From positions 17,818 to 81,817 of the IMG/VR virus record IMGVR_UViG_3300043436_001797: a stretch of DNA of 64,000 bases. One strand, written 5' to 3'. Under the pieces are notes generated by a model. It worked only from the letters and a program-made list of their open reading frames with translations, did no database searches and was not told where the DNA came from. The translations under genes and the position numbers were made by a program. This document shows positions 14,596 through 64,000 of the stretch, in pieces. Source of the stretch: a virus. Numbering within the stretch: position 1 is the first letter of the stretch; the number at the start of each line of letters is the position of its first letter.

Positions 14596-14739
14596 ATGTC
14601 ACAGTGTCCAAATTGCGGAGCAGCTATGAGCTGCGGATGTCAAAAGAAAGTACTTTCTAATGGTAAAATAGGATGTACTAAATGTGTTAATCAAACTTCT
14701 ACAGCAGAGGCAAAAGAAACTGAAACTAAGAAAGAATAA
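14596..14739 (+). CDS. Small zinc-ribbon-like protein, 47 aa
   Basis: MSQCPNCGAAMSCGCQKK, then SNGKIGCTKCVNQ, and an acidic Lys/Glu/Thr tail. Seven Cys residues in CPNC, CGC and CTKC give enough ligands for at least one zinc site. I recognise CPNCGAxMSCGCQKK as a recurrent small phage protein next to tail genes. The ATG is 15 bases after the previous stop and the stop overlaps the next ATG (TAATG). It may assist folding or attachment of the Cys-rich fibre proteins around it; this is inference. Confidence 0.68.
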   Translation: MSQCPNCGAAMSCGCQKKVLSNGKIGCTKCVNQTSTAEAKETETKKE

Positions 14740-17537: not shown

Positions 17538-17547
17538 AATAAAAGAA

Positions 17548-18744: not shown

Positions 18745-18768
18745 AAAAATAATTAGTATATTAAAGAT

Positions 18769-20424: not shown

Positions 20425-20451
20425 GTATAATAATAATTAAAAAGATAAATA

Positions 20452-21009: not shown

Positions 21010-21010
21010 T

Positions 21011-24000: not shown

Positions 24001-27000
24001 TGGTACAACAGCTAATCCTGATACAGGTCAAATTGTTGTTAGATTTTCTGGGATACCTGCAGCACCAGGAACATATACTTGGTATCTTCCTATAGGTTGT
24101 GATATAATTCCGATCACAAGGGAAATAATTCCTGATCCTGGTTCAATAACAGATTTAATTTGTGGTGCTGCTGCATCTAGTCTTACTGGTGTTTTATTTG
24201 AAGGTGACGATGCTTCAGGTATAACCTTTACTGTAAGTTATACTGGAGGCAATGGTGGGGATTATGCTGCACAAAGTATTTTATCTACTGGAGTAGCTGG
24301 TCTTACGGCAACTCTTGCTGCAGGAAGCTTTGCTAGTGGTTCGGGAACTTTAACGTACACACTTTCAGGTACTCCTGCTGATGGCGGTACAGCATCTTTT
24401 GCTTTAAGTTTTCCTGGTCCAAATAGTACTACTGTATCCTGCACTGTTATTTTAGATGTTGAAGAAGTAATCCTAATTACATTTTTAGGATGTAACAGCG
24501 CTACATATACTCCTAATACTCCTCCTTTTTATGTCAGTACACCACTAAATGAAAACATTTCTATAGCGTATGCTGCGTCTAATAGTGGAGAATATGCAGG
24601 AGATACATTTGCATCAACAGGTCTTACAGGATTAACCCTTACTCTAAATCCAACTACTGTAACTAGTTCTGGTTCATTTACAGGAACAATAACAGGTATA
24701 GCGGGTCAAACAGGTACAGCAATTTTTACTATATGTATAGGTGGGTATAACGGACAAGGTCAGTTCTGTTGCACTTTATCAGTACCTATTGTAGAAATTC
24801 CTTCAGGAGTAGAGCAATTAGATTGTGCAAATGCTGTATTTACCGGAACTGTTTCATTTCCTGGAAGTTACGCTGCCGGAAATAATATTACTATTACTAT
24901 ACCTTACATTGGTGGAAATGGTGGTGGATATCCTTATACAGCATTTTCATCCACAGGTATAACCGGTCTTACAATGTCAGCACCTGCAGGGAACTTTGCA
25001 GGTAGTCAAACTACTCCACAAAATGGTACTATTCTTTTTACAGTAATAGGTACTCCGAGTGGAATAGGTAATGCTGTATTTGATATTGAAATTGGAGGTC
25101 AAACTTGTCAGATAGAACTACCTGTAGTAGAATTACCCGGGGATGCCAATCTAAATTGCGGAGCTGCTACTACAAGTTCTCAAGTACTTTCCGGACAATC
25201 TGTTAATGGTATAACATTGTCCATACCATATACAGGAGGTAATGGAGGAACATATGACTCTCAAATCATACAATCTACACCAGCAGGAGTTACTGCATCA
25301 TTAGCTCCTGGAACTCTTGCTGTAGGTTCTGGTGTTTTAGTACTATCTCTTACTGGTACAATGCCTGCTGGATTTATACCGATTACATTTCAGTTTGCAT
25401 TTCCAGTAGGTTCACCTGCTTGTACTATTACACTAACTCCTCCGATTGAAGATGGTACAGCAGACTTAGACTGTAACAGTTTAAGTGTTGTTGGTACAAT
25501 TACGTATCCTGATCCAATACCTGTAAACAACCCCATTATACTTTATATAAACTATACTAACAGTAATGGTGGATCATACCCTGCAGCAACATTTACTTCA
25601 GCTTTAGGTGGAGTACTTGGTTTAACTGCAACTCTTGAAGCTGGTCAGTTTGCATTAGGATTTGGACAATTACAATTAACAGTAACTGGTACTCCGCAAA
25701 GTTCCGGTACAGCATATTTTGATATTACAATAGGAGGAACAACTTGTACTTTTGATATACCTGTTGAACCACCTATCGGTGATATAGATCAGTTAAATTG
25801 TAATCCTAGTTCCATTGCTGTTACCGGAACTTTGGTAAATGGACAAGTTGCTTCAGGAGTAACATTTACAGTTCCTTATGCAGGATCTAACGGGGGCACT
25901 TATCCTGCAAATACTGCTAACTCTTTAAGTATAGTTACAGGACTTACTGCAACTTTAGCTTCAGGTATATTTAACGAACCTAATGGAACAGTTACTTACA
26001 CGGTAACAGGAACACCACTGGGTTCAGGTCCTGCTACATTTCCTATTACTGTTGCAAACCAGTCATGTACAATATTACTTACAGTAGATCCTATACCAGG
26101 GACAGCAGATTTAGACTGTGCTAATGCTACATTTAGTGCTACTCCTGTACAAGGTTTTTCTACTTCTGTAACAGGAAATATTCCTTATACCAATGGTAAC
26201 GGAGGATATTATGATACTTATACCGATACTGTAGATGGATTAACATTAACTATTAACGATGGGTATTTTAATAATGGTTCAGGATCTGTTCCATTTACTA
26301 TTCAAGGTATACCCACTGTATCAGGAACAATCACATTTACTAATATTCAGGTAGGTGACCAAACCTGTAATTTAACCATTACTGTTTCAGAACCGCCTCC
26401 TATTATTGACGATCTACTCTGTGATCAAGCGGTTATAACCGGATCATTAGTAATAAATGAAGTTGCTTCTGGTGTAACTATTACAATCCCTTACGAGGGA
26501 AGCAATGGGCAACCTTATCCTGAAGATAGTAGTAACTCTACTGGAATTACAGGATTAACTGCTACTACCCCTGCTGGTGTATTAACTGATCCTACAGGTG
26601 AATTAATATACACAGTTACAGGTACTCCGACTACTAGCGGTGTAGCAACGTTTACTATAACCATAGGCACACAGACCTGTGTTATTAGTATACCTGTAAG
26701 TCCTCCTAACTTCTTTGGTCCTGAAGAGCCCTCTCCTTGTGAAGAAGTTACTTACACGGATCCTGGTTGTGAAGTATTAACTGATACCTGTACAATTCTT
26801 TTCAATGGTACTGAAGTAGTATACACTACAATAAGTACTACTGATCCTTGTCAGGTATCTTTTCAGGTTCCTTGCGATGCTCCACCTAATGAGGTTGCTA
26901 TTGTAACTTTCTTAGATTGTGAGGATAATATAATTACAACTGAAGAATTACCTATTGGTGATAAGTTACCATCTTATCTTTCACAAACTGCAGGATGTCC

Positions 27001-28720
27001 TGGTGATGAAGTTACTTTATTAGACACAGGTTGCACATTTGCAACTAGCGTCACAAACATTCAAGTTTGCTACCCTGGATCAACAGGTTGTATTTCTATA
27101 GGTCCCGGTACACTTTTAAACTCAAGTCTTCCTTTACCTTGTTCTATTGCATTCACAATACCTGTACCTTCACCAGCACCGTTTTATCCGGTTGATGTTC
27201 AAATTGTATTTGAAGGTTCGTCAGGAGTTTTAGAACAATTTGACTTTACAGTTGAAAATTGCGCTGACACAGAAAACAGTTTTGAACCTATTGGTTGTGC
27301 ACTTCCTGGTGACGAAGTTACTTTTACTAATCCTAACTGCAACTTAGTAAGTCCAGATTTTAGTGAGCTGCTTGTAGGAGGAATTAGTGCTGCAATAGTA
27401 AGTGTTAATAATACTCCTCCATGTTCTGTAACGTTCTTGATTCCTGATGAGACAAGTTCAGGTTTACAGGAAATACAGTTTATAGACGATCTTGGTAACT
27501 TATTAGGTACTGAAGAATACTCTGTTGCCGCAGAAGGTGTTGGTTCTAATTACACTGTTACGTTTACTCCTCAAATTGACACTTGTCATAGAATATACTT
27601 CCGTACAACTCAAGAAGAGTATTGTTACTATCAAGCAGATGGACCTTTTGAAGTCGGTGTACCTGTAACAGTTACTATTGATTTGCAGGATTATGCTGAG
27701 TGTTTGGTTACTGTTCCACCGACTAGTTGTGATGATAATATAATAGTTACAGGTTACATACAACCATGCTGTACTAATGAAGATGCTCTAGATAATAGAG
27801 TAGAAATGAACTGTGTACAGTATGCTGCAACAGATTGTGGACTATACTCTGTAGTATGTAACTCATCTAATTGCGGTACGTTTACTAAATCAAACTGTTT
27901 TGCATCAGGTTGTACTGGAATAAACGATCTCACTGAATATGCATTTAGAGGTAATGCAGGGATACCTAGCAATACAGTATATGTATGTTCTGAAGGAAAT
28001 GGTGTTCAAAACACTACTAATTCCACGTACACTATAACTAAGTTGTCCTCTGTTGTAGCTAAAGCTTATGGACTAAATATACTACAAGCTTATCCTTTTC
28101 AACCTTCTACTATTTACTGGACAAATAATGCAAGTGTTGAATGGAATCCTGCCGGAACATGTTCTTTTGTCGGTGATCATGTATATGTTCCAGAAAATAC
28201 TACTACAGGTACTGTCTTAAGCGCAGTTATTTTAACAGTAGGGACTACATACGAGTTTACTTTTAGTATGTTTTCTAACTTAGCTAACATTATTAGTTTT
28301 ACTTCCGGGCTAGGTAACACCGTTTCTGTATCAAGTCCTGGTGGATCTTATCCTCCTGTTGGAACAACTTATCAAATCACAGCAGGATCTACAGGAAGAC
28401 TTTCGATTAGTATCCCTTCTGTAGGAAAAGGTACTTGTTTTCAGCTAACTGGATTAAGAGTAGTTCAAACAGGAATAAGAGCAACATGCTGCACATGTTT
28501 CGGTGCTGAGGTTATCTTAGATTTACCTGAAGATGGACCTACTTCTATAGAAGTATACTATACTCAGTGTACTGATGATGGTCCCCAGATTGCAACAACT
28601 ACACTAACAAATTCTGTAAATGTAATAAACTGCTGTACTTATGGTAGTGTGTTTCCTGTAAATAGGTTTGATGTAGATTATATAACATCACTTGTCTACT
28701 TGATTAATTCAGGTTGTTGA
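21011..28720 (+). CDS. Giant adhesin/fibre with three FISUMP-like domains and eight tandem repeats
   Basis: A 2569-aa protein, probably the main long receptor-binding fibre. Domains in order: three FISUMP-like (Fibrobacter succinogenes major paralogous, C-lectin/FGE-like) domains at about residues 45-315, 340-550 and 670-930, each with W-x-x-x-N-L, a C-x-x-G-[YFL]-L-[YF] centre, a W-[RK]-V-x-[ST] or YRVPSNDDF-like turn and a final RLV/RLC strand. Eight tandem ~106-aa Ig-like repeats follow at about 1045-1895. Next come three Cys-rich IPT-like units (AGCPGDEVTL, IGCALPGDEVTF) at about 1910-2170, and a Cys-rich C-terminal region. There is no signal peptide or T9SS tail, as expected for a phage rather than a host protein. 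FISUMP domains are typical of Bacteroidota surface proteins, suggesting the fibre borrowed host-type adhesive folds. A terminator follows. Confidence 0.75.
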   Translation: MPICNNQYPTGGTPAPNPSVGTSGPNVSITSANVEIIYPTIIINNSTTGTQKQWFAANLVGAEVFTLNFLPSDINWFGTLRAASPADNGIGNTEAAVLNNTASAKLCESGFLYKPDCIQNINNWLASTAGVAAVGAGWRVATQADFEHLLEALDPLSDANSTFKLRNTSTSGNATINTQWLSTSTAPPAGVTLNYSGFNAFAAGARVITTATPQSGGSINFNGRFVAWWLGPSTPGGTDNQYNVTGFAKAFYKSVSIWNRGDQPQGATNPANSLKFNIAGSSTNPGLTSGTYISNDPNVGNSIRLVRDWVNPDCPDLTTSDALNPTLVAAGAYEPVTFDQTVYPSIWIGAQKWVASNLVETLAPGLTLVDDGTWKTLGDNYVPAYTYCNINTELLDCKQGYLFNYSAGVAINNYLVGQGINQKYRVPSNDDFNELVDYLGGASVAGGKLKSNTPTPTTYWDAPNTGADNSSGFSAIHNGVASVNNTPPIELEFTNCGPINRVGATYRSRDENSTFPGSSALIELTNSSDNSSIYEVQNYLGHAIRLVIPSIPVTIVFAGPGTGSATVTGVDSTITDTGTSGFVIRLRNGEDLTVIATPDSPYVTGSINVTDGVPSGVPQTTPIAGGLQVNGLSEAITVTITFTNPPAPASCNPCTFSQLNSGLTYGSVTVNSVCYPTLQIGSLEVTTYNLTVRDLSTFLFPGVPFITNAAGWVSAGSSSSAACTFTNFANNSLSNSTNENTCATGLLFNHHAIALINAYLSANNPGWRVLTECDAKHIKNRVSIDLSVGCPANGLGVGAINVGGNGLAGNASDECLQNDDFNPSGLGATLMSAGGTTDNAAANNDSGYTLVKTGYINDTGSFSGPVNSNIWTSTSADKQYANGSSTVYDGYAWRGFAADLGSGGETYIDHIPNLPSWGFALRLCQTIDTPYDFTGTHNVSLDTGVLVAGVPISGATSTIDYNNSYGTWRINKCRDIVNNVTATAGINDVAPGWDKLNGTTANPDTGQIVVRFSGIPAAPGTYTWYLPIGCDIIPITREIIPDPGSITDLICGAAASSLTGVLFEGDDASGITFTVSYTGGNGGDYAAQSILSTGVAGLTATLAAGSFASGSGTLTYTLSGTPADGGTASFALSFPGPNSTTVSCTVILDVEEVILITFLGCNSATYTPNTPPFYVSTPLNENISIAYAASNSGEYAGDTFASTGLTGLTLTLNPTTVTSSGSFTGTITGIAGQTGTAIFTICIGGYNGQGQFCCTLSVPIVEIPSGVEQLDCANAVFTGTVSFPGSYAAGNNITITIPYIGGNGGGYPYTAFSSTGITGLTMSAPAGNFAGSQTTPQNGTILFTVIGTPSGIGNAVFDIEIGGQTCQIELPVVELPGDANLNCGAATTSSQVLSGQSVNGITLSIPYTGGNGGTYDSQIIQSTPAGVTASLAPGTLAVGSGVLVLSLTGTMPAGFIPITFQFAFPVGSPACTITLTPPIEDGTADLDCNSLSVVGTITYPDPIPVNNPIILYINYTNSNGGSYPAATFTSALGGVLGLTATLEAGQFALGFGQLQLTVTGTPQSSGTAYFDITIGGTTCTFDIPVEPPIGDIDQLNCNPSSIAVTGTLVNGQVASGVTFTVPYAGSNGGTYPANTANSLSIVTGLTATLASGIFNEPNGTVTYTVTGTPLGSGPATFPITVANQSCTILLTVDPIPGTADLDCANATFSATPVQGFSTSVTGNIPYTNGNGGYYDTYTDTVDGLTLTINDGYFNNGSGSVPFTIQGIPTVSGTITFTNIQVGDQTCNLTITVSEPPPIIDDLLCDQAVITGSLVINEVASGVTITIPYEGSNGQPYPEDSSNSTGITGLTATTPAGVLTDPTGELIYTVTGTPTTSGVATFTITIGTQTCVISIPVSPPNFFGPEEPSPCEEVTYTDPGCEVLTDTCTILFNGTEVVYTTISTTDPCQVSFQVPCDAPPNEVAIVTFLDCEDNIITTEELPIGDKLPSYLSQTAGCPGDEVTLLDTGCTFATSVTNIQVCYPGSTGCISIGPGTLLNSSLPLPCSIAFTIPVPSPAPFYPVDVQIVFEGSSGVLEQFDFTVENCADTENSFEPIGCALPGDEVTFTNPNCNLVSPDFSELLVGGISAAIVSVNNTPPCSVTFLIPDETSSGLQEIQFIDDLGNLLGTEEYSVAAEGVGSNYTVTFTPQIDTCHRIYFRTTQEEYCYYQADGPFEVGVPVTVTIDLQDYAECLVTVPPTSCDDNIIVTGYIQPCCTNEDALDNRVEMNCVQYAATDCGLYSVVCNSSNCGTFTKSNCFASGCTGINDLTEYAFRGNAGIPSNTVYVCSEGNGVQNTTNSTYTITKLSSVVAKAYGLNILQAYPFQPSTIYWTNNASVEWNPAGTCSFVGDHVYVPENTTTGTVLSAVILTVGTTYEFTFSMFSNLANIISFTSGLGNTVSVSSPGGSYPPVGTTYQITAGSTGRLSISIPSVGKGTCFQLTGLRVVQTGIRATCCTCFGAEVILDLPEDGPTSIEVYYTQCTDDGPQIATTTLTNSVNVINCCTYGSVFPVNRFDVDYITSLVYLINSGC
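24145..26702 (+). repeat. Eight tandem ~106-aa Ig-like repeats within the giant adhesin
   Basis: Each unit begins with a hydrophobic-Cys signature (DLICG, FLGCN, QLDCA, NLNCG, DLDCN, QLNCN, DLDCA, DLLCD at about 24150, 24482, 24816, 25149, 25464, 25788, 26107 and 26409). Each contains YTGGNGGxY-like, STGITGLTATL-like and TVTGTP-like strands, and most end near GxQTCxIxxPV. Spacing is about 300-334 bases. The DNA has diverged, so the array is old or selected for protein rather than recently amplified. Confidence 0.88.
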
Positions 28721-51752: not shown

Positions 51753-54700
51753 ATGGCGGAACCCTTACCAAGACCTACAATACCGTTTACAAAAGAGTTT
51801 TCTCCATATGAGAATGCTAGTAAACCTGTAATATCTTCAGAAGATATACGCTCTAAGCTGCATCAGATCAACGATTACTTTGATAAAAACTTACCTTCTG
51901 TAATAGAGGGTATTAATAAATATGAAGAAGATCTTTTAGATAAAGCTATTCTTGCTAAGAAACCTTCTAGTTTTGATCAATACGCTAAGTTACCTGAAAT
52001 TCAAAATGAGTCATCTGGTAATATTCTTACCGGACCCAGATCAGCAAAAGGTTTTTTAGACTTACCTACTTTTGATAAGATTAATCAGTTTGCTTCTCAA
52101 TCAAGATTTGAAGCTGAAACATCAAGGGATCCTTTTAAGTTTGCTAAACCCACATCTTTTAATGCTAGTATCTACGGTCACAACTATGACCGCTACTATA
52201 GTCATCCTAAATTTAAACAATTAGGTTTTGACTTTCGTAGAGATAATGAATCTATATATAACGCCTCTTCTACATGGTTTGATGATTTTAGAAGAATGTC
52301 TTCCAAGTTTGTTTCAAATTTTTATTTAGCGGGACACGATCAAGCTGGTAACTGGGGGAACTGGTTTTCATTAGGTAGTCCAAACAGTTCAGCGTTAATG
52401 GAGCACAATATAGCATCAGGTTCAACTAGCAAAGAAGGTGCAGGTGCTTGGGTAACAAATTTTACTGGCAATCTTGCTTATACTATAGGTACTATAGGTG
52501 AGATTTGGTTAGAAAACGCAGTAGCTTACGCAGCAGCGGGTATTACAAGAAACCCTACATTGATAGCAGCTGCAGGAACAAAAACTGCTTTAGGTTTAGG
52601 TAAGCTAGCTAAGTCAATGAGTGTGATGGCTAAAACACTAAACAATGTAAATAAAGCTAGACAGTTTAGAACAGCTGCATGGGGTGGTGTTAAAGGTGCT
52701 GCTCAAACTCTAAACCCATTTAGAGAACTTACCGAGTTAGGTATTAAAGCAGCAAACCCTAACAGTGCTTTTAATAGACTTAATGGTATGGCGAAAGCAT
52801 CAAAAAGTTTTGGTGCTTTCTATAGAGGTTTGCGTGAGATAAATGCTGTAACAGCTGAATCTAGATTAGAAGCTGCTTTTGTTCAGAATAAGGTAGCTAA
52901 CCAAGCTATAAGCGGTTATTACAAAAAGAACGGTAAACTTCCCGAAGGTGCTGCAGCAAATGATATTACAGAAAGATCTAAGCTAGCGGGTGAGAAAACT
53001 TTTATAGCTAACGTTCCTGTCATCTATGCTAGTAACCAATTAACTTTAGGTACCTCCCTTAGAGGTTTTAGACCTGCGTCTAGACTGATTTCAGCTAGTA
53101 ATTTAAAAGGTACTTTCTTTAAAACAGTAAGGAACTTTGACTGGAAGAAAACAGGAAAGTCACCTATGGAAGTAGTAGCCAACACGGGTGCTATTGCAAA
53201 TACTTTTAAGTTTTTAGGTAACACTGTAAAGAAAGATTTCTGGAAAACAGTACCATCTAGGTTAAAAGGAACCTGGGCAGCTAAACCTTTTAGTCAAGCG
53301 TTAGGTAGCGGTATTAGATTCTTTAGTCAAAATCTTGCAGAAGGTTTACAAGAATCATATCAAGAAGCTGTACAGTCTGCGGTAAGTGATTACTACTTAA
53401 CTAATTACTTTGCAGACCTTTACAAAGATCCTATTCTATCAGCTCAAAATAGTTGGGCTGCATCTATTCATAAAGGAGTAGGTGAGCAAATGACCGCTCA
53501 AGGTTTAGATACTTTTCTTCAAGGATTTTTAACAGGCGGTGTTATAGGTCCTGTACAGACTAACATAGCAAAATGGTTCCAGTCTGTAAACTTAAGAATG
53601 AAAGATTATAAAAATCCTGGTGAGAGAGAGAAGTTTATAAATGATGAGAAAAAACGACTTCAGCAATATGCTGATGCTGTAAACTCATACACTCAAGATC
53701 CAATTCTATGGTCTAGATGGTTAAGTGAAAATGCTATACAGCAAAGAGACTTATCTGAAAAAATAAACTTAGCAGAAGAAATAGGAAACAGAGCTGACGC
53801 TGAAACCGCTAAGGATGATTCTTTGTTTATGCACGTTGATACATTACTCAGAGCTGGTAAGTTTGATGACTTTATAGATCATATGGAAGGTCTTACCGAT
53901 CTTACCGATGAGGAACTTAAGGACGCTTTTGAAAACTATAATCTAGAAAGCACTGATCAAAACGAAAAGTCTTATAGAGAAAGATTAAATATTGCCATTG
54001 ATAAAGCAAAAGAGATAAAGGCTAGAATAGATGAAACAAATAAGATTGAGAATATTTTCAATCCTGATTTGTTTGATCCTGCAGTAGATCCGGAAGCGTA
54101 TCTAATGGAGTACATGGCGTATGATACTTTTGAGATAGCTAAACGTGCTATAGCATTTAATGAATACACTTACAAGCGTACCGCTGAAAGAATAGAAAGT
54201 GTATTAAATAAGTCAGTTACTTCTGGACCATTGGGTTCTGCGCTAGCTTCTGACTTCGCAGTATTATTTTCTCCTATAGGATTAAGCGCTGAGACTTCAA
54301 AGGGTAAACTCTATCAGTTTGAGCAATTGCTACAAACTGAAATAAAATCTCTAAAAGCAGGTACACCTCAAGAGAAAAAGCTAGCTGAGTATAAAACACA
54401 ACAGCTTGAAAAACTTAGAACATTAAAAGCTTTTATAGTAAACTACAGAAAGAGTCGCATACTTGTAAATAAAGCTAAAGCAGCTGCACAAGATTACGCA
54501 TCCGCTCCTAAAGAAAGTCAAGAAGCATACGATTCTTTAAAAAAGATGGCTAATGCTCTTAGTAAGAATTCTAAGTCTGGAACGATTGACGCTAATCTAG
54601 ATGATCCCAACACAGCTATTGATGTTATTGTAGATGCATTTATAAAAAATGAGTTATATGATGCCTATAATGACTATGTAAAAGTCATTGCAAAATCTAA

Positions 54701-57311
54701 TAATGCTACCCAGATAAAGAGTACAGTAGATAAATCATTTAATGAGTTCCTTGATTACTTGCAACTTACTAGTGATCACCAACTTATGGGTGAGTTTATG
54801 ACTGTGTTAGCTGATCCGATGTCTGTGTATTCTATGGCATCTAGATTGTTTAATGCTCAAAAACTTATATCTGAAAGATCAGGTGAACTTCATAAGATGG
54901 GTCTTGAGGAATACATCTCAAAGATTGCTGCTCCTGATGCTTTGATGCAAGGTCTGTTTGATATTGGAGTATACTTTGATCCTGACTTTATAGATGATTT
55001 CTTAAGTAAGAATGAGATTCCACCATACTTTATAAGTGCAGCGGACGGGTCTATTATAGAAATGACTGACCCTAAGTACAATGAGATTGTAGACCTTATT
55101 CAGAAGTATGCTGTACAAACAGGTAAGCAGTTCTCTGGTATGCCTGAGAAGTATGTTCCACCTGTAGCTAAAGAGACAGAAACAGCACCGGTATCTAACG
55201 TTCCGCCGGAAGATGATGAGAAAGAAACTGATGAAGAAGCTTCAGTAACAGACGCATTAAAAGACTTAGCTCCTGAGTTAAGAGTACTATTGATAACTGC
55301 AGCTAAAGCTAAAGGTATGGATGCAGAAGAGTTTCTTCTAAATGATCCTGAAGCAGCTTTAATTATTGATAACTACAATAAGACTAAGTCTAGTTCTGTG
55401 GATATATCTTCTGTAACCGGAACTGTTACTGTTGAAAACCCGATGTCTATCACACCTCAGATGATGCCGGGTATAGAGAATATACTACAAGCAAGTGCTG
55501 CAGAAGAATGGGTTGTAGACGAGTCGGATAAGAGATACTATATAAGCAAAGACGGTACTAAGAGAGTACGCAGAGCTACATCACTGATAGACAAAGAGTT
55601 TACAGAGTCTGCAAGATTAACAGCGTATCAGAACAGAGGTAATGCTTTGGACGAACTGTTACGTTTGTTCTTTGAGCCTAAAGTAAAAGATGGTGTAATA
55701 ACAGAGCTTGCCTTTAGAGATGTTATGATTAACATGTTTCAAGGTAAGAAAGCTGGTATATATACTGAAGCTGCTATTAAGAACACTATTAAAAAATGGG
55801 TTAAGGAAAATCTTAGCGAACAGAAGATGTTTGATGAGTTTGGTCTTAAACCTACAGAAGGTTTCTATACCGGTGTTGTAAATACTTTGTATGAAATGTC
55901 TTACAAGCTTGCAGATTTCAAGATTGTATCATCGTTGCCAACAATGTTTGGTATGTCTTCTACAGGTGAACTCGTAGGTGGTACTCTTGACCTTTTAGCT
56001 GAGTACAAAGATGGTACTCTGCACATTATAGATATAAAAACATACGCTAACGACAGGTTAGCTGATGAAACTAGAAACTCCGATATGGTTCAGCAGAACG
56101 TCTATAGAGAAATCATAGAGGGTAACACTGATAGAAAGATCTCTACTATGAACACGATTCAGATTAGAATTAACTTACAATCTGATGATCAGACGGTTAC
56201 ATCTGCAGAGCTTAGAAAAAATAAAAAGAACGGTATACTTCACGACGTTAAAAAAGGAGAAGTCAAAGCTATACTTGAAAGAATAGAATCAGGTAAACCT
56301 GCTGAGACTGGAGAAGGTAAAAGTGCTCCTGAAGAGAAAGACATCAAGATGTTTGTACCTGGTAGGTTTGCGGGTAAACTTGTTTACATGACACCCGGTG
56401 CAGGTAAAACAACAGCTGTACAGAAAGCCATGAAAAAAGGTTTGAAGCTTGCTGATATGGATGACCTATTGGTAGAAGCTGTAAAAGCATCTGGTGTATC
56501 ACTCAAGTCTTTAGGGTTTGATGAAGTAAATAACTCTAACGTAGGTAAAGTTATCTACGAAATGTATAATAAAGGAATGTCTCAAGAAGCTGATGGTGTC
56601 TATGATGCTGCATTTGCAAAGACTCAGGATCTTCTTAAGTCAGGATACACAGTACTTACTGGTAGTCAACGCTTTATAAATAAAGCTGATGTTGTAGTTA
56701 GAACTGAAGATAAAGGGAGACTTGCCGCTCAAATTGCTGCAAAATCTGGTGAAACAGGTAGAGATGCAATTACAAAGATTCTTTCTGAGGAAGAAAGAGC
56801 GTTTGAAAAAACTCCTGAAAAAGTAGAAGTTCTTGGGGAGACTCAGACTGCTGCTGATTTACTTTTGTCTGAAGTAGAAAAACAGGGAGAAGCACCTTTC
56901 TCTGAGACTGCTGAGGTTACAAAAATGAAAGAAGCTAAATCTAAAATGGAACTTGATGCTACTCTTCAGTCTTATATGCTCAGAAAAGAACGTTACGCAT
57001 ATACTGGAAAAGACGGTGCCCGTAGAATTTACACACCGATGGAGATAGCAGCAATTGCAAAAGAACGCGCAAGTACATTAAAGTTAGGCTCAGATTTCTT
57101 AGATTATATAGACGACATTCTAGATTTGAAAAAAGGTCCTATATCTAAAGCTGAAGAGACTGCGATTAAAGAAAACATCGACTCAGCTGCAGAAGACACT
57201 CTAGACTCTAGTAAAGTTGACGATATAGCCAACGATGTTGCTAAAGGCAACAGTGACATAACTGATGATGATATTGACGGTTTAAATAATTGTGAAACTC
57301 CAGGGACATGA
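51753..57311 (+). CDS. Giant cargo protein with PD-(D/E)XK nuclease and P-loop kinase-like domains
   Basis: A 1852-aa protein. The N-terminal part (GHNYDRYYSHPKFKQLGFDF, then RRDNESIYNASSTWFDDFRR) is of the crAss-like large-cargo type. Residues about 215-305 are rich in Ala/Gly and hydrophobic (GNLAYTIGTIGEIWLENAVA), which could insert into membranes. A long helical middle follows. At about 1280-1475 lies a RecB/Cas4-type nuclease: NRGNALDELLRLFFE, GGTLDLL with D1413, IIDIKT with D1427 and K1429, and QQNVYREII. At about 1540-1700 a P-loop domain starts TPGAGKTTA (K1552), followed by LADMDDLL as in nucleotide or polynucleotide kinases. The stop overlaps the polymerase gene start (ATGA). I infer a virion-delivered enzyme that may act on host or defence DNA or on DNA ends; activity is untested. 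Confidence 0.75.
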   Translation: MAEPLPRPTIPFTKEFSPYENASKPVISSEDIRSKLHQINDYFDKNLPSVIEGINKYEEDLLDKAILAKKPSSFDQYAKLPEIQNESSGNILTGPRSAKGFLDLPTFDKINQFASQSRFEAETSRDPFKFAKPTSFNASIYGHNYDRYYSHPKFKQLGFDFRRDNESIYNASSTWFDDFRRMSSKFVSNFYLAGHDQAGNWGNWFSLGSPNSSALMEHNIASGSTSKEGAGAWVTNFTGNLAYTIGTIGEIWLENAVAYAAAGITRNPTLIAAAGTKTALGLGKLAKSMSVMAKTLNNVNKARQFRTAAWGGVKGAAQTLNPFRELTELGIKAANPNSAFNRLNGMAKASKSFGAFYRGLREINAVTAESRLEAAFVQNKVANQAISGYYKKNGKLPEGAAANDITERSKLAGEKTFIANVPVIYASNQLTLGTSLRGFRPASRLISASNLKGTFFKTVRNFDWKKTGKSPMEVVANTGAIANTFKFLGNTVKKDFWKTVPSRLKGTWAAKPFSQALGSGIRFFSQNLAEGLQESYQEAVQSAVSDYYLTNYFADLYKDPILSAQNSWAASIHKGVGEQMTAQGLDTFLQGFLTGGVIGPVQTNIAKWFQSVNLRMKDYKNPGEREKFINDEKKRLQQYADAVNSYTQDPILWSRWLSENAIQQRDLSEKINLAEEIGNRADAETAKDDSLFMHVDTLLRAGKFDDFIDHMEGLTDLTDEELKDAFENYNLESTDQNEKSYRERLNIAIDKAKEIKARIDETNKIENIFNPDLFDPAVDPEAYLMEYMAYDTFEIAKRAIAFNEYTYKRTAERIESVLNKSVTSGPLGSALASDFAVLFSPIGLSAETSKGKLYQFEQLLQTEIKSLKAGTPQEKKLAEYKTQQLEKLRTLKAFIVNYRKSRILVNKAKAAAQDYASAPKESQEAYDSLKKMANALSKNSKSGTIDANLDDPNTAIDVIVDAFIKNELYDAYNDYVKVIAKSNNATQIKSTVDKSFNEFLDYLQLTSDHQLMGEFMTVLADPMSVYSMASRLFNAQKLISERSGELHKMGLEEYISKIAAPDALMQGLFDIGVYFDPDFIDDFLSKNEIPPYFISAADGSIIEMTDPKYNEIVDLIQKYAVQTGKQFSGMPEKYVPPVAKETETAPVSNVPPEDDEKETDEEASVTDALKDLAPELRVLLITAAKAKGMDAEEFLLNDPEAALIIDNYNKTKSSSVDISSVTGTVTVENPMSITPQMMPGIENILQASAAEEWVVDESDKRYYISKDGTKRVRRATSLIDKEFTESARLTAYQNRGNALDELLRLFFEPKVKDGVITELAFRDVMINMFQGKKAGIYTEAAIKNTIKKWVKENLSEQKMFDEFGLKPTEGFYTGVVNTLYEMSYKLADFKIVSSLPTMFGMSSTGELVGGTLDLLAEYKDGTLHIIDIKTYANDRLADETRNSDMVQQNVYREIIEGNTDRKISTMNTIQIRINLQSDDQTVTSAELRKNKKNGILHDVKKGEVKAILERIESGKPAETGEGKSAPEEKDIKMFVPGRFAGKLVYMTPGAGKTTAVQKAMKKGLKLADMDDLLVEAVKASGVSLKSLGFDEVNNSNVGKVIYEMYNKGMSQEADGVYDAAFAKTQDLLKSGYTVLTGSQRFINKADVVVRTEDKGRLAAQIAAKSGETGRDAITKILSEEERAFEKTPEKVEVLGETQTAADLLLSEVEKQGEAPFSETAEVTKMKEAKSKMELDATLQSYMLRKERYAYTGKDGARRIYTPMEIAAIAKERASTLKLGSDFLDYIDDILDLKKGPISKAEETAIKENIDSAAEDTLDSSKVDDIANDVAKGNSDITDDDIDGLNNCETPGT
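55590..56177 (+). other. RecB/Cas4-type PD-(D/E)XK nuclease domain in the 1852-aa protein
   Basis: Residues about 1280-1475. An RGNALDELLRLFF helix stands where the family has G-x-x-[VL]-H/D; GGTLDLLAEY gives D1413; LHIIDIKTY gives D1427-x-K1429-T; QQNVYREII is the downstream Q...Y motif. All catalytic positions of the family appear to be present. Confidence 0.82.
56370..56852 (+). other. P-loop NTPase, kinase-like, in the 1852-aa protein
   Basis: Residues about 1540-1700. KLVYMTPGAGKTTAVQK is a strand followed by a Walker A loop (G1549 to T1554, lysine K1552); KLADMDDLLVEAV resembles the substrate-binding DxD strand of small kinases. LLKSGYTVLTGSQRFINKAD, then VVVRTEDKGRLAAQIA, look like later strands and the lid side. 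It is most like nucleotide or polynucleotide kinases, but the substrate cannot be told. Confidence 0.65.
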
Positions 57312-60300
57312 GAATTTGTAATATAACTAGCAACCAGCAAGAGATACTACTTAAAATTATTGCGAAGAGACTTATAGATCTTGATGCTAAAAAACAACCT
57401 TTTGTTCTTAAGGACTACATGACTTCTTTGTACAAATACCTTGATACTAAGGTAGGTGACAAAGATATGCTGATTGGTTATACGGCTTTTTCTCCGACAC
57501 TGTTGTATCAACTGGTTACCCAAAAACAATATGAATCTATTCTAGGTCCGTCTGCTGCTGAGATCTTTGATCTAAAGAAAACTTTTGCGTCTAGTCCGTC
57601 TAAAGTATTTGAATACTTTGGATTAAGCTTATCTCCGCAACAGTATATAACTCAACAACTTAGGGACAATGAGATAATCAAACAGCAAGAAGCTTTAGAG
57701 GAAGCTCGTATGAAAGAGCTTACCGCGTTGTCTCTTGTATATAGATTCTCTGCTCGTCCTGATACACTGAATAGTACTACACTGGGTAATGACCCTGATG
57801 CTACCACTCCTGGTAATGCTTTTGTAGTTTCTGTTCTGAATGATTACATTTCTAGATATGGTGACTCAGGTATCGATGAGATATCTGATAGATATGCTCT
57901 TGTTCTAGTAAATGCTAAAGATTATCTGCGACCTCAAGATACTGTAGATGATTCTCTCAGAACCGGTCCAATTCTTATGGTCAGTGACCCAAAGGGTAAC
58001 ATACTGTATTTCAATCAAGAGAAGTTATTGGGTGAAGGTGTTATCGAAGAAGTATCTGCTAGTCAAGGTAGTCCTATAGTGTTTAGACAAAGAAGAAGTC
58101 TAGATAAAATTCAGTCGCCGGAAGAGATCGCTAAGTCTGCTAGTATAACCACTGTAGAAGCAAAAGCTATTATAGAAAGTCAGCTTGAAGAAGTTAATAA
58201 AAAGATTTACCATGTTTTAAGTAACAAGGATGCTAAGATTCTTCATAGAATTAAATGGGGAAGCACCGGTACTCTTATTAAAGATAACGCCAATAGAAAA
58301 CCTTTAAAGAACAGTAAGCTAAACCCTGATGTATTCAGAATACTACCAGTTCTTTCTGAGGACAAGAAGAAGCCTACTATCCATTTACAGAGCTCTCACT
58401 TTGATGAGATTATTCCTATAAGGGGTAACTACATCAATAATCCTAACAAACCCGACATAAATATTGACCCGGGTTTGAGAGACGCTATACTACAAGTTCT
58501 TCTTGGTAATAACCTTACAATAGAAGGTGCGACACTAGATGGTAGCAATCCTTCAGCTATTGCATTTAGATCTAGATTTATAAACACTTATCTGGGTAAT
58601 AATTATAATATTATAATTAAAGAAGATACCGGTGAATTATATATTACTAGACTAATTAACGATAAAAAGACAACGTTTAAGATAACTAGATATAATCCTT
58701 CTACAAAACAGTTTGAGTTTATAGGAGCTGCGTATAACAATAACAGTCTTCTATCTGATATATCTACATTTACTGTAAATGATAAAGAGGCGTTCCAGTC
58801 TCTTAACATTTTGGTTGACACTGAGAATACAAAACCTGTAGGTTATACTAGAAATTCTAAGGGTGTCGTGAATCTAAAAGAGCTTACTAATAGAGAATAC
58901 AAAACTCTTCTTATAAACAACGGTAATACTAGCGTACAGTATAATGACGAGACAGGGGAGTATGAAAGAATGCACCCCTATTTTAAGTTTGCAGTAGATG
59001 CAGAAGATGTAACTAAGTTTTCTGATCAAGAGGTTGCTGCTGTTCTAGATGTAGAAGCTCCGTCGATTGAGATGATCTATGGAGAAGATGTAGAAGATGA
59101 GCAGATAGAAGATATCCAGTTCCCGGATATAGATTCTTTCGATAAATTGCTTGGTCAGAAAGTAGCTCAAGCAACACCGGAGCAGATTAAAGCTGCTTAC
59201 GATTGGTGGAAGAATCATCCAATGAGCTCAAAGATTCCTTTTAAAGCGGTCTTTGAGATATTTAATCCAAACAATGGTCAGTCAATTGCTACATTTAATA
59301 AGTACGGTATTACGCTTTACAAAGGATCTGACTATTCAGATCTTTACCATGAAGCGTTTCACGCGTTTACTCAGATATTCCTAACGGATAATCAGAGACA
59401 AGATCTTTACAAGAGTGTAAGAAGTCTCAAAGGTTCTACTACAGATTACTTAGGTAACAAGGTAGCCTTTGAGGACATGGATAAAACGCAAGCTGAAGAA
59501 TTCCTTGCTGAGAAGTTTAGAGAGTATATGCTCTCCGACGGTAAGAAGTTTGGAGACAATACTCCTACTAAAGCTAAGTCAATCTTTAAGCTCATGTTCG
59601 ACATACTTAAAGACATCTTTGGTTTTGGTAACATGGACATAGAAGATGCTCTTGATAATTATCAAGCAAATGCTCTGATCAACGAGTACTTCTTTAATCT
59701 TAGAAAGGGTAACTTCTCTGATATAAATGCGGATCTATCTGAAGCTGAGGAGTTTAACAAACTTAGAGCAGTATCCGAAGACCAACAAGAGAAGGTAGAT
59801 AAGCTAAGCTATTCAGACTTGAAACTTTTGGTAGATACCATGAACAGCATGATGTCTACTATTATCAATAATAAAGATGCTACCGGGACAGACCTGCGTT
59901 ACAGCAGCATTGTAACCGATGTAAATAAAAGAGTAGAGCTGTACAACGAAGTCCTTGTAAAACTTGTAGAGAAAGCAAAAAGCATAGGTGAGCAGATTGA
60001 AGCAATAACAGACAAGACTGATATCAATAGAAAGAAGCTTATAAAGCTTTACAACATTCTTGCTATAGGTATAAATAACTACTCACCATCCCTAAAACAA
60101 AATAACAAGGTCACAGTATCTGATGTACTGAACGGAGCAAATGCTGAGTCTACCGGTCTTATTGCATACCACATTGCTAAGTCTAAAGACTTTTTGGTAA
60201 TTGATGATACATATAATGCTGAGGATGCATCTTCTACCGGAAAAGAGTATGTAAAGAATTCAGGAAATGAAATGTCAGCAAAAGACTTAGCGTCTGCAGA

Positions 60301-63300
60301 TATTCACTTCTTAGTAAATAGTATCCAAACAACTACCCCAAATGCTTTAGGAGAACCTAAGTTAGAGGATTCTACATTTGTTTGGAACCTATTGACCCGT
60401 TTAGGTAAGGGTGTAAAGAACGCCGATGAGTATTACCAAAAGCTCCAAAACTTTTTAGCTGTTACAGATACTCGTACTAGAAACCACAACGTAGTAAAAC
60501 AGATTGTAAGTAAGCTTGGTAACCCTAAGATTACTATGACTGACGGTAAGTTTGAAGATTATATACCACAACAGAATCTGTGGACTAATCTAATAAACAT
60601 CTTTACTCTACCTAGAATCAAACTGGTTCAGCTTAACTTATCTACGTCTGTTGATGATAATGGTGAGAGACAAGTTAGAATTCTTCCTGGTGTATCTAAG
60701 TCAGAAACGGATCCAATTAAGAGAGCATATGATAACACATTTGCTAAAAAGAGATCTAAGTATATAAATAGATATAAAGGTCAAGGTTTAGGTATGAGAG
60801 ATTCTCAAACCGGTTACTACCTTAATCTAGTAAAAGTCATTGAAGACTTTCCTGTTGTTAATGATGCTGCTGCTAAGATTAAGTTCTTAAAAGCTATAGG
60901 TATAGATATTACCGCAAACGATGCAATGGTTAAAAACTTTGCAGCTAGACCTAAGAATCTAGGTGCTTTTGCAACGTTGATGCATCAGAAAATAAAGAAC
61001 ATCTTAGAGCTAAATTATAGTCTTAAAAATCAGAATGCGCCGCAGATCTATATAACAACACCATCACAACTGGTTGAGTTAAATGTTCCCGGTACTGATC
61101 ATATAAGAAATCAGTCTACGCTTTATAGAAGTTTGCTCGAGACAGAACTAGAAACATCTGGTAAGTATACTGTGGGTATGGTTTCTAATGCTAACGGAGA
61201 TCCACAGTACGAGATATCTTTAAAGAGCACTATTAGTGAAAAGATTGCAATGTTCAACGGAGCAAAGAGTTACGCTGAGCTTATTGCTATTCCTGAGATG
61301 TCTTACATGGATGTTCGTAGAAATCCTTTTATAAAAAGTCTGCGGATAATGACCGAGACATTTGGTGAGGATTTTTGGAAACCTGGAAAAGGTGCTAGAC
61401 AATCAAAGTCTTTGTCAGTATCCGGAATAGAAAGATCTAATAGTATAGAGCTTTTAAATTCTGCAGGTGTTGCTGTAATAGAAAACGATATAAATCAGTT
61501 TGGTGTGTCGTCTTATCAAGCAGATGATACTACTCAGATTCTTCAGAACCTATTTACTTACATGTTGTACGGTGTATCTGAAGCAACACGCCACTCAGAT
61601 AAATCAACAACGCTGTATTACAGAACCCCTGTAAAAGGACAGTATGTAAGCTTTAACTCTTTCTTTGAAGATAAAGCTATACGTAATACAAAGATTGTTA
61701 GGTTGATGACTGGGTACCTCTACTCTGAGGTTTCCAGAATGGTAAGACTTGCTAATGACGATGACGCAGCAAATGTTACCGTTGGAGATAGCACGTATAA
61801 AGAAGTAGCATCTACCATTAAAAACTTTGAGGGTATCTTAGGAGAAGAAACCAGAAAGTCTATTGAGAAGTGGGTTAACGACTATAAGATTCTTGAAGGT
61901 AATACAGACAACATAGAAGAAGACTTTAAGCTACAGTGGATGAGTAAGAACTACTCTACAGTGTATGGTGAAATTGTAAATTACTTCGAGTCACAAATTG
62001 CTGAAGCTATTTCTGATATTACAAGCACCGGTATTCTAAATAAGAACAATCCGGCGTCTGCACAGATATGGGAGAATATTAAAAATAGTGTAGGAGTATC
62101 TCAGCAAGCTGATCCTAACTTTGATGACAATATCATTGCAGCTTATGTGGTTAACTCTTGGATGCATTCTTATGAAGCTACCATCATGTTTTACGGTGAC
62201 CCAGCTTTGTATAACCATCTAAAAGAAGACTTCCATAAGAGAAACCCGTTCATTGCTGCTACAGGTACCTTACCTAGAACCGATGCGTCGTTCATAGACT
62301 TTGTTTCTTTCTATAAGAGACAAGACAGATATGCATCTTCAAAATACTTTACAGGTACTCTTAGTGATAGAGCTAAGAATAAAACCTGGGGTAGGACTAT
62401 GGATTCTGCAGTTCTGGAAGACACTGCATATAATTCTGCAAACTATGGGATATATGTAGAGATTGCAGTAGAGAAAGAAAGAGCTAGACTTAAGAAACTA
62501 AATAAGGAACTTACAGCAGAACAAGAAGCTGATATTCGTAAGGAGTTTAAAGAGTATGCTGGTTCTAAAATTGGTGACGGTCAAGGTTGGATTAGTTTTG
62601 ATAGCTACAGGGATCTAATGCTATCAATGAGAAAGTGGAGTCCTTCACAAGAGAAATTGTACTGGGATATTATCAAAGGTAAAGACATCAGTGCTTTACA
62701 AGTAGCTCAGTTCTTCCCTGTTTTAAAAATGCAATATGGTGGTGAGCTTGCTACTAAAGGTTTACCTGTGCAGGGATACCACAAGTTCTCTTTGGCACCT
62801 CTTATTCCGAATGTAGTTCAAGGAACAAAACTTGAGATCCTACATAACAAGATGACAGAACAGGGTATTGACTATGCTTTGTTCCAAAGTGGTTCAAAGA
62901 TTAATACCATTACTAAAAACGGTACTGCAGATAAATTCTATGTAGATAAAGAGAATCTAGGTGATGTAGCTTTTGCTGATCCCGATTACCAGTTTACACT
63001 TAATACTATCTATACAAACTTCTTTAAACTTCAGGTTGAAACACCAGATAGTTACAAGGGTAAAGTCGTATTCTCTACACAGCTTCGTAAAATAATTGAA
63101 GAAGGTTTATATGAAGAAGGTCGTCCTAGAAGTTTTGATGGCACTAAAGAACAGTTTGAGGCTTTACCTGAGACTGAAAAGATTAAGTATAAGGAGTACG
63201 CTAAACTTACTAACTATGAGAGATTAGTTAGCACTCTTACTGAAATGAAGTATAAAGAGCTTCAGAAAGATGCCGGTCTTACTTTCGAGGATGGTAGGTT

Positions 63301-64000
63301 TGTATTGTCAGAAAAACTGATAACGTATCTGAATAAGCAGCTTACCGTACAAGACGTAGCTGAACACGAGATAGACTTTATCAAGTATGACACAAGAGCT
63401 AAAAGACTTGTGTTTGATTTGAGTATTCACCCTTCTGCAGCTATGTTGGATAAACTGCTTTCTGCACTTATCTACAAGAAGATTATCAATCAGAAGGTTA
63501 AAGGTGAGGCACTTATCCAAGTATCTGGTGCAGGTTTTGAACCAGCGGGAATAAGAAAAGCTACAGATGAAGAAAACAAGCTTTATGGTAATGGTACCCT
63601 TCCTTTCTATAAATATGACAGGAATGGAACCAAAGCTATGAAAGTAAAGATTGCTCTACAGGGTGACTTCAAAAAACTATTGGAACATGAGCATAAAGAC
63701 GGTAATAAGATTGAAACCTTAGAACGTCTTAATGAAATGCTTAAGGATGAGAAGTGGTTGAGTACCGGTAATAATCGTAAGATGGTTACCATAGCCGGTG
63801 TTCGTATTCCTGTGCAAGGTCTTAACTCCGTAGAATTTATGGAAGTGTATGAATTCTTACCAGAGAATGCTGGTAATATGATTATCCTTCCTGCAGATAT
63901 TGTAGCTAAGTCAGGATCAGACTTTGACATTGATAAACTGTCTTTGATGTTCCCTAACCTAAAAGTAATAGGTAAGAGTGTAAAACTTTTGACTCATGAT
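57308..64000 (+). CDS. Giant virion RNA polymerase with an N-terminal zincin domain, 3' end cut by the window
   Basis: The frame is open from ATG 57308 (MRICNITSNQQEILLKIIAK) to the right edge: 2231 codons without a stop. Near the end, VRIPVQGLNSVEFMEVYEFL (R2166, P2168) and SGSDFDIDKLSLMFPNL (D2205, D2207, D2209) correspond to the universal beta-prime order R-x-P...N-A-D-F-D-G-D-Q-M of multisubunit RNA polymerases, i.e. the catalytic double-psi beta-barrel loop. crAss-like phages carry such a polymerase in the virion and inject it to transcribe early genes. Upstream, residues 681-685 (HEAFH) form an HExxH zinc site followed by EEFLAE at about 730-735, typical of a gluzincin-like metallopeptidase. 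Well over 2200 residues precede or include the catalytic loop, so the whole protein may exceed 3000 aa. The start overlaps the previous stop. Confidence 0.82.
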   Translation, partial: MRICNITSNQQEILLKIIAKRLIDLDAKKQPFVLKDYMTSLYKYLDTKVGDKDMLIGYTAFSPTLLYQLVTQKQYESILGPSAAEIFDLKKTFASSPSKVFEYFGLSLSPQQYITQQLRDNEIIKQQEALEEARMKELTALSLVYRFSARPDTLNSTTLGNDPDATTPGNAFVVSVLNDYISRYGDSGIDEISDRYALVLVNAKDYLRPQDTVDDSLRTGPILMVSDPKGNILYFNQEKLLGEGVIEEVSASQGSPIVFRQRRSLDKIQSPEEIAKSASITTVEAKAIIESQLEEVNKKIYHVLSNKDAKILHRIKWGSTGTLIKDNANRKPLKNSKLNPDVFRILPVLSEDKKKPTIHLQSSHFDEIIPIRGNYINNPNKPDINIDPGLRDAILQVLLGNNLTIEGATLDGSNPSAIAFRSRFINTYLGNNYNIIIKEDTGELYITRLINDKKTTFKITRYNPSTKQFEFIGAAYNNNSLLSDISTFTVNDKEAFQSLNILVDTENTKPVGYTRNSKGVVNLKELTNREYKTLLINNGNTSVQYNDETGEYERMHPYFKFAVDAEDVTKFSDQEVAAVLDVEAPSIEMIYGEDVEDEQIEDIQFPDIDSFDKLLGQKVAQATPEQIKAAYDWWKNHPMSSKIPFKAVFEIFNPNNGQSIATFNKYGITLYKGSDYSDLYHEAFHAFTQIFLTDNQRQDLYKSVRSLKGSTTDYLGNKVAFEDMDKTQAEEFLAEKFREYMLSDGKKFGDNTPTKAKSIFKLMFDILKDIFGFGNMDIEDALDNYQANALINEYFFNLRKGNFSDINADLSEAEEFNKLRAVSEDQQEKVDKLSYSDLKLLVDTMNSMMSTIINNKDATGTDLRYSSIVTDVNKRVELYNEVLVKLVEKAKSIGEQIEAITDKTDINRKKLIKLYNILAIGINNYSPSLKQNNKVTVSDVLNGANAESTGLIAYHIAKSKDFLVIDDTYNAEDASSTGKEYVKNSGNEMSAKDLASADIHFLVNSIQTTTPNALGEPKLEDSTFVWNLLTRLGKGVKNADEYYQKLQNFLAVTDTRTRNHNVVKQIVSKLGNPKITMTDGKFEDYIPQQNLWTNLINIFTLPRIKLVQLNLSTSVDDNGERQVRILPGVSKSETDPIKRAYDNTFAKKRSKYINRYKGQGLGMRDSQTGYYLNLVKVIEDFPVVNDAAAKIKFLKAIGIDITANDAMVKNFAARPKNLGAFATLMHQKIKNILELNYSLKNQNAPQIYITTPSQLVELNVPGTDHIRNQSTLYRSLLETELETSGKYTVGMVSNANGDPQYEISLKSTISEKIAMFNGAKSYAELIAIPEMSYMDVRRNPFIKSLRIMTETFGEDFWKPGKGARQSKSLSVSGIERSNSIELLNSAGVAVIENDINQFGVSSYQADDTTQILQNLFTYMLYGVSEATRHSDKSTTLYYRTPVKGQYVSFNSFFEDKAIRNTKIVRLMTGYLYSEVSRMVRLANDDDAANVTVGDSTYKEVASTIKNFEGILGEETRKSIEKWVNDYKILEGNTDNIEEDFKLQWMSKNYSTVYGEIVNYFESQIAEAISDITSTGILNKNNPASAQIWENIKNSVGVSQQADPNFDDNIIAAYVVNSWMHSYEATIMFYGDPALYNHLKEDFHKRNPFIAATGTLPRTDASFIDFVSFYKRQDRYASSKYFTGTLSDRAKNKTWGRTMDSAVLEDTAYNSANYGIYVEIAVEKERARLKKLNKELTAEQEADIRKEFKEYAGSKIGDGQGWISFDSYRDLMLSMRKWSPSQEKLYWDIIKGKDISALQVAQFFPVLKMQYGGELATKGLPVQGYHKFSLAPLIPNVVQGTKLEILHNKMTEQGIDYALFQSGSKINTITKNGTADKFYVDKENLGDVAFADPDYQFTLNTIYTNFFKLQVETPDSYKGKVVFSTQLRKIIEEGLYEEGRPRSFDGTKEQFEALPETEKIKYKEYAKLTNYERLVSTLTEMKYKELQKDAGLTFEDGRFVLSEKLITYLNKQLTVQDVAEHEIDFIKYDTRAKRLVFDLSIHPSAAMLDKLLSALIYKKIINQKVKGEALIQVSGAGFEPAGIRKATDEENKLYGNGTLPFYKYDRNGTKAMKVKIALQGDFKKLLEHEHKDGNKIETLERLNEMLKDEKWLSTGNNRKMVTIAGVRIPVQGLNSVEFMEVYEFLPENAGNMIILPADIVAKSGSDFDIDKLSLMFPNLKVIGKSVKLLTHD
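59255..59587 (+). other. HExxH zincin-like metallopeptidase site in the polymerase protein
   Basis: Residues about 650-760. LYHEAFHAFTQIFL (H681, E682, H685) is a helix with the zinc-binding HExxH; AEEFLAEKFREYML about 45 residues later supplies Glu candidates (E730, E731, E735) for the third ligand. It could process virion proteins or a host target. Confidence 0.7.
63803..63952 (+). other. RNA polymerase catalytic loop (DFDID)
   Basis: Residues 2166-2215 of the protein starting at 57308. The Arg-x-Pro to first catalytic Asp distance is 39 residues, against 35 in E. coli beta-prime (R425 to D460). The three aspartates (DFDID, 63920-63934) would hold the catalytic magnesium. The fourth position is Ile where cellular enzymes have Gly. 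Confidence 0.82.

What the first reader, a model, noticed from the sequence alone, without database searches (positions are those of the whole stretch)
55590..56852. Nuclease and P-loop kinase-like domains side by side in a probable ejected protein
A RecB/Cas4-type PD-(D/E)XK nuclease with all key residues is followed within about 70 residues by a P-loop domain with DxD, as in polynucleotide or nucleotide kinases. A virion-delivered nuclease-kinase pair could degrade host DNA, process phage DNA ends on entry, or counter restriction or CRISPR systems.
Basis: partly seen in the sequence, partly recalled or inferred. Interest (0 to 1): 0.75.

Follow-up and report, generated by a model that had tools for sequence, protein, structure and literature searches.

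The report
Nuclease plus P-loop domain, ejected protein
A phage of the crAss-like group carries, in the large protein it probably injects alongside its own RNA polymerase, a DNA-cutting domain already known in this phage group, followed by a kinase-like ATP-binding domain that I found in only this phage and one close relative; the combination is a modest new variant rather than a new kind of system.

Summary
ORF 51753-57311 (1852 aa) has a RecB/Cas4/EXO5-type PD-(D/E)XK domain (aa ~1252-1482; D1413, D1427, K1429, Q1447, Y1451) and, about 60 residues on, a P-loop domain (aa ~1536-1713; YMTPGAGKTT, DMDD). The window is a crAss-like phage. The ORF sits directly upstream of the virion RNA polymerase gene and overlaps it by ATGA, so it corresponds to the RNAP-associated cargo protein, gp47 of PhiCrAss001.

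The nuclease is not new: Yutin 2021 reported PDDEXK domains in large transcription-associated crAss-like proteins. I find it in gp47 of PhiCrAss001, cr85_1, Kolpuevirus, Mahstovirus and Wulfhauvirus and in three environmental records, with D, D and K retained in every member examined, so it is probably an enzyme.

The P-loop domain is lineage-specific: this phage and one 92-93% relative only, under purifying selection (dN/dS 0.17). A low-confidence fold resembles NMP/dephospho-CoA kinases, not specifically polynucleotide kinase.

Best reading: an ejected DNA nuclease with a lineage-specific nucleotide-kinase-like add-on, perhaps for host-DNA degradation and nucleotide salvage; the mechanism is untested. 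In passing: these cargo and RNAP polypeptides share a C-terminal cysteine tail (19/21 versus 2/90 other ORFs).

The parts
51753..57311 (+). ORF of 1852 aa: RNAP-associated virion cargo protein (gp47 class)
   Evidence: directly upstream of the vRNAP ORF; nuclease domain shared with Steigviridae gp47
55506..56198 (+). PD-(D/E)XK nuclease domain, aa ~1252-1482
55638..55652 (+). nuclease motif I, GNALD (aa 1296-1300): GxxxD in the gp47-associated family where stand-alone relatives have GxxxH
55989..55991 (+). catalytic D1413 (GGTLD)
56031..56039 (+). catalytic D1427-I-K1429
56091..56105 (+). QxxxY motif, Q1447-Y1451
56199..56357 (+). linker between nuclease and P-loop domain; 77 aa longer in the closest relative
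56358..56891 (+). P-loop domain, aa ~1536-1713, nucleotide-kinase-like by low-confidence fold; boundaries inferred from predicted secondary structure
56385..56414 (+). Walker A YMTPGAGKTT (aa 1545-1554; K1552)
56454..56465 (+). DMDD, aa 1568-1571 (DxD motif)
57279..57308 (+). C-terminal cysteine tail GLNNCETPGT (C1847), a feature shared by crAss-like cargo and RNAP polypeptides
57308..57311 (+). ATGA overlap of the stop of this ORF with the start of the vRNAP ORF
57308..64000 (+). virion RNA polymerase ORF, cut by the end of the contig; zincin HEAFH at 59348-59362 and DFDID at 63920-63934

Best explanation
The protein is the RNAP-associated virion cargo protein (gp47 class) of a crAss-like phage from a poorly sampled lineage. 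It carries a conserved, active-looking RecB/Cas4/EXO5-type DNA nuclease and, in this lineage only, an added P-loop domain with a nucleotide-kinase-like fold. Proposed mechanism: the protein leaves the capsid with the virion RNA polymerase; the nuclease cuts DNA in the infected cell, most likely host DNA; the P-loop domain phosphorylates a nucleotide or other small product, which would make the pair a degrade-and-salvage unit. Shown here: domains, motifs, position, relatives, purifying selection. Inferred: packaging and ejection (from the homologue), enzymatic activity, the DNA target, the kinase reaction. Rough odds: identity of the protein and of the nuclease 0.9; nuclease active 0.75; P-loop domain a real kinase 0.55; host-DNA salvage as the purpose 0.25.
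For: Position and neighbour. Nuclease profiles and folds. Homology to the nuclease of gp47 in Steigviridae and in environmental crAss-like records, with catalytic residues kept. The homologous gp47 is in virions (PMC10172136). Purifying selection: dN/dS nuclease 0.078, P-loop domain 0.169, linker 0.52. Nucleotide-kinase-type folds fill nearly all of the top 50 structure matches of the P-loop model.
Against: No activity, packaging or ejection data exist for this phage. The P-loop model is poor (pLDDT 57, two near-identical sequences) with best Foldseek E 0.014 and TM-scores of 0.2-0.4, and no Pfam or NCBIfam cut-off is met. The two domains are not a conserved pair, and the linker length varies. 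In Dulem virus 41 motif I and the QxxxY tyrosine are lost. Salvage as the purpose has no direct support.
Confidence: 0.55

Rival explanations
1. The nuclease acts on the incoming phage DNA: it resects ends for circularisation or recombination, or exposes single strands for the co-ejected RNA polymerase. The P-loop domain is accessory.
For: The nuclease lies in the protein that travels with the vRNAP; its group includes resecting enzymes (AddAB, AdnA, RecE, EXO5).
Against: phi14:2 and the Leptolyngbya phage lack the domain in the equivalent protein; the vRNAP template requirement could not be checked because the paper is not held.
Confidence: 0.3
2. The P-loop domain is not a kinase but another P-loop ATPase (for example Sak4-like, RecA-fold) that assists the nuclease on DNA.
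For: A profile of phage ATPases with LIYGKPGVGKTS...LDLDD matches the Walker A to DMDD region best among the clusters tested, E 1.9e-6 in a search of 103 targets.
Against: That match ends about 50 residues in and rests on the motifs used to select the cluster; fold matches are to nucleotide kinases.
Confidence: 0.25
3. The region is mainly structural or degenerate and not catalytic.
For: In Dulem virus 41 motif I and the QxxxY tyrosine are lost although D and DxK remain, so erosion occurs in places.
Against: D, D and K kept across all relatives examined; lowest dN/dS of the protein in the nuclease.
Confidence: 0.08
4. The pair counters host defence (restriction, CRISPR or other nucleic-acid-based systems).
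For: Proteins injected at entry often do this (polyvalent proteins, PMC5512222).
Against: No defence-related relative was seen; a nuclease conserved across the crAss-like gp47 class suggests a core role rather than an anti-defence one.
Confidence: 0.08

Closest known systems
PhiCrAss001 gp47 and its Steigviridae homologues (RNAP-associated virion cargo)
   Same: Same gene-block position class, same nuclease domain with GxxxD, D, DxK, QxxxY, C-terminal cysteine tail.
   Different: They have no P-loop domain at this place (motif scan); PhiCrAss001, cr85_1 and Dulem virus 41 instead have a zincin after the nuclease. Full-length similarity of the window protein to them is not detectable by BLAST.
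PDDEXK domain in large transcription-associated crAss-like proteins (Yutin et al. 2021, PMC7886860)
   Same: Same kind of domain in the same kind of protein, already reported.
   Different: The main text names no P-loop or kinase domain next to it; its figures and supplements could not be read here.
EXO5, Cas4-like ACE1, AdnA/AddB nuclease domains
   Same: Best solved-structure matches of the nuclease by profile and fold.
   Different: Motif I is GxxxD here rather than GxxxH; no helicase partner and no Fe-S cysteines were identified in the domain.
Nucleotide-kinase fold (dephospho-CoA kinase, CMP kinase, adenylate kinase)
   Same: Walker A, DxD after the second strand, order of predicted elements.
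   Different: No significant sequence match; low-confidence model; substrate residues unknown.
Polyvalent proteins of phages and conjugative elements (Iyer et al. 2017, PMC5512222)
   Same: Giant multidomain proteins deployed at invasion, including a vRNAP with a zincin in N4-like phages.
   Different: The terms RecB and P-loop kinase do not occur in its main text.

Membership tests
PD-(D/E)XK nuclease, RecB/Cas4/EXO5 group | Motif D ... DxK | tested here: met
   D1413, D1427, K1429; invariant in alignment A2 of ten sequences
PD-(D/E)XK nuclease, RecB/Cas4/EXO5 group | QxxxY motif | tested here: met
   Q1447-Y1451, invariant in A2
PD-(D/E)XK nuclease, RecB/Cas4/EXO5 group | Motif I GxxxH | tested here: not met
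   GxxxD here and in gp47-class relatives, GxxxH in stand-alone ones; Asp can still bind metal, so this narrows the subgroup rather than excluding it
PD-(D/E)XK nuclease, RecB/Cas4/EXO5 group | Profile and fold match | tested here: met
   PDDEXK_1 over cut-off on the fragment; Foldseek E 3e-5 to ACE1
PD-(D/E)XK nuclease, RecB/Cas4/EXO5 group | Metal-dependent DNA cleavage | not testable with these tools
   needs an assay
crAss-like RNAP-associated cargo protein (gp47 class) | Gene adjoining the vRNAP gene in the structural/transcription block | tested here: met
crAss-like RNAP-associated cargo protein (gp47 class) | Homology to known gp47 proteins | tested here: inconclusive
   detected for the nuclease domain; the rest of the protein has no detectable BLAST match
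crAss-like RNAP-associated cargo protein (gp47 class) | Presence in virions and ejection | not testable with these tools
   virion presence shown for PhiCrAss001 gp47 only (PMC10172136)
P-loop nucleotide kinase | Walker A and DxD | tested here: met
   aa 1545-1554 and 1568-1571
P-loop nucleotide kinase | Curated family cut-off | tested here: not met
   AAA_17 19.2 bits against 27; none in NCBIfam
P-loop nucleotide kinase | Nucleotide-kinase fold | tested here: inconclusive
   nearly all top-50 PDB matches are such kinases, best E 0.014, but model pLDDT 57
Polynucleotide kinase | Match to the AAA_33 profile that recognises crAss001 gp61 (annotated polynucleotide kinase) | tested here: not met
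   no AAA_33 match for the window domain at E 1; gp61 scores 3.5e-12

The most novel reading that the evidence does not exclude
The vRNAP-linked cargo of crAss-like phages is a modular delivery platform: a conserved C-terminal cysteine tail marks the polypeptides, and the stretch around the gp47/RNAP junction gains, loses or moves enzymes between lineages (nuclease, zincin, GNAT, SF1 helicase, and here a nucleotide-kinase-like domain), so that each lineage injects its own first-minute enzyme set; in this lineage the set includes a nuclease-kinase pair that degrades DNA and recycles the products.
Probability: 0.25. Interest if true: 0.65.

Novelty: new variant of a known kind. Interest (0 to 1): 0.38.

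Why it matters
[quoted passage not shown] A nuclease whose catalytic residues are kept across divergent gp47 proteins predicts an activity in the first minutes of infection that can be tested directly in a cultured phage, PhiCrAss001. The P-loop add-on suggests that this protein gains enzymes in some lineages.

Tried and rejected
Looking for the pair elsewhere: tblastn of the whole protein and of the P-loop part in 50,697 phage records gave no match. Five IMG/VR scans with the protein, its nuclease, its P-loop part, the RNAP neighbour or a strict P-loop DNA pattern returned only the one 75-kb relative contig; the nuclease profile reached others. Genome scans with strict patterns gave nothing, then one Streptomyces match that I did not follow. 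An early thought that PhiCrAss001 gp47 has a zincin instead of the nuclease was wrong: it has both. The L001 linker insert has no meaningful relative. No nuclease of this family was detected in phi14:2 gp67, the Suoliviridae giant proteins or the Leptolyngbya phage protein. The Drobysheva 2021 vRNAP paper is not held, so the template requirement of the polymerase could not be used.

Full report
What was checked. The finding lies in ORF 51753-57311, 1852 aa. The record holding the window is an 81.8-kb virus contig. Terminase, portal and head proteins match PHROG families, the portal matches Crassvirales and, best, Leptolyngbya phage Lbo-JY46, and the next ORF (57308 to the contig end) matches crAss-like virion RNA polymerases including the phi14:2 catalytic subunit. 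That ORF carries HEAFH and DFDID. The two ORFs overlap by ATGA.

Nuclease. On its own the domain passes the Pfam PDDEXK_1 cut-off (24.9 bits against 22, E 2.3e-5) and matches a PHROG exonuclease at 2.5e-6. tblastn against phages gives weak hits (best E 0.009), most of them in crAss-like phages, in proteins that stand beside the vRNAP genes. Aligned, these share GxxxD, GTLDLLA, DxKT and QxxxY. IMG/VR adds L014, L017 and L018; in L018 the nuclease ORF stands directly upstream of the DFDID ORF, the same order as here. A wider profile finds the domain in cr85_1 gp47 (5e-40) and Dulem virus 41 (8e-23), neither of which was used to build it, and more remotely in the protein after the giant protein of cr1_1 (1e-9, with GxxxH). 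PhiCrAss001 gp47 was one of the six sequences in that profile, so its independent evidence is the BLASTP match to the DAC15 domain, E 6e-10. These E-values are for small local target sets. D, D and K are kept in all of them; Dulem virus 41 has lost motif I and the QxxxY tyrosine. PDB profile hits are EXO5 and, weakly, AdnA; Foldseek hits are Cas4-like ACE1, AdnA, EXO5 and AddAB. Between the window and L001, dN/dS is 0.078 in the nuclease against 0.153 overall.

The nuclease is known. Yutin et al. [quoted passage not shown] Bayfield et al. 2023 detected gp47, gp49 and gp50 in PhiCrAss001 virions and place them as capsid cargo to be ejected (PMC10172136); the word nuclease does not occur in their main text.

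P-loop domain. YMTPGAGKTT and DMDD are followed by predicted helices, a strand at YTVLTGS and further helices. AAA_17 at E 0.0016 is under its cut-off. Foldseek of the isolated model returns dephospho-CoA, CMP, adenylate and thymidylate kinases as nearly all of its top 50, best E 0.014, TM-scores 0.2-0.4. The model rests on two near-identical sequences (pLDDT 57), so kinase-like is probable, not shown. A profile of phage P-loop ATPases also matches the motif region, which leaves a non-kinase NTPase open. The AAA_33 profile does not match the window domain, though it matches PhiCrAss001 gp61, annotated as polynucleotide kinase. The domain was found only here and in L001 (92% identical); it was not found in the L014, L017 and L018 records (two of them short fragments), in phages or in IMG/VR at the sensitivity used. 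dN/dS of 0.169 shows that it is maintained in this pair. The 77-aa longer linker in L001 argues against a rigid two-domain unit.

Mechanism. By homology the protein is ejected with the vRNAP. The most economical reading is an injected DNase with a lineage-specific nucleotide-kinase-like add-on. Host DNA breakdown with salvage would explain why the two are paired, but this is inference, and action on the phage's own DNA is about as likely. The phage has another PDDEXK nuclease at contig position 15608-15844, outside the window, in line with the two or three such nucleases per genome reported by Yutin.

Wider pattern. Different enzymes stand in or near the gp47/RNAP block in different lineages: zincin after the nuclease in PhiCrAss001, cr85_1 and Dulem virus 41; zincin in the RNAP polypeptide in the window; SF1 helicase at the C-terminal end of the cr50_1 and cr118_1 giants; a GNAT domain in the Leptolyngbya phage protein beside the cargo protein (3.6e-8) and perhaps in phi14:2 gp67 (E 0.07). 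This is suggestive only: the sample is small, Yutin mapped domains of this block, and polyvalent phage proteins are a known theme.

Cysteine tail. Of 21 gp47-class, RNAP or fused polypeptide ends in 13 loci, 19 have Cys in the last ten residues, against 2 of 90 other ORFs of 150 aa or more (Fisher p 4e-17, not corrected for relatedness). The pattern was first seen in most of these same loci, so this is not an independent test. In four further records fetched afterwards, six of seven such ends have it (cr1_1 giant, cr271_1 2749-aa protein, both Dulem virus 41 proteins, cr85_1 gp47 and gp50) and the cr271_1 giant does not; three accessory proteins lack it. Assigning the cr271_1 2749-aa protein to the class is my guess. 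One literature search found nothing on it.

Verdict. Observation confirmed; interpretation partly supported; the nuclease already known, the P-loop add-on a new variant of modest interest.

Noticed in passing
57279-57308, and the ends of cargo/RNAP ORFs in L002-L007, L010-L012, L014, L018, L023, L265, L268, L270, L271: crAss-like gp47-class and RNAP polypeptides end in a short tail with a cysteine (GLNNCETPGT, HQKECLS, GNKIC, KRKKECK): 19 of 21 such ends against 2 of 90 other ORFs. Function unknown; a packaging or processing tag is one idea.
   Followed up: partly
L023:8120-15145, L010:8935-15660, L002:9210-23534, L005:7712-22552, L265:4355-12601: The gp47/RNAP block carries different extra enzymes in different lineages: zincin, nuclease, SF1 helicase, GNAT.
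   Followed up: partly
Window 2185-4947; L264, L265: The portal's best phage-record match is Leptolyngbya phage Lbo-JY46, a cyanobacterial phage, 32% identity over 96%, suggesting that this lineage and a cyanophage share a crAss-like structural block.
   Followed up: partly
56823-57308 (aa 1691-1852): Synonymous divergence from L001 drops to dS 0.04 in the C-terminal part, against 0.23 for the whole ORF: possible recombination or constraint on the nucleotide sequence.
   Followed up: no
G000 contig position 15608-15844 (L266), outside the window: A further, separate PDDEXK nuclease ORF (347 aa, GxxxH type) of the same phage.
   Followed up: partly
Window 12602-28720: A run of ORFs, several with cysteine-rich C-termini (VTEEFASCEPCVNC, LNKLACGCGCSSCN), one of 2569 aa; perhaps tail-fibre-like.
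   Followed up: no
L003:15830-16121: In cr108_1 the RNAP ORF stops inside the catalytic motif (...AKAGSD) and resumes about 0.3 kb later, as expected of an intron or a frame break.
   Followed up: no
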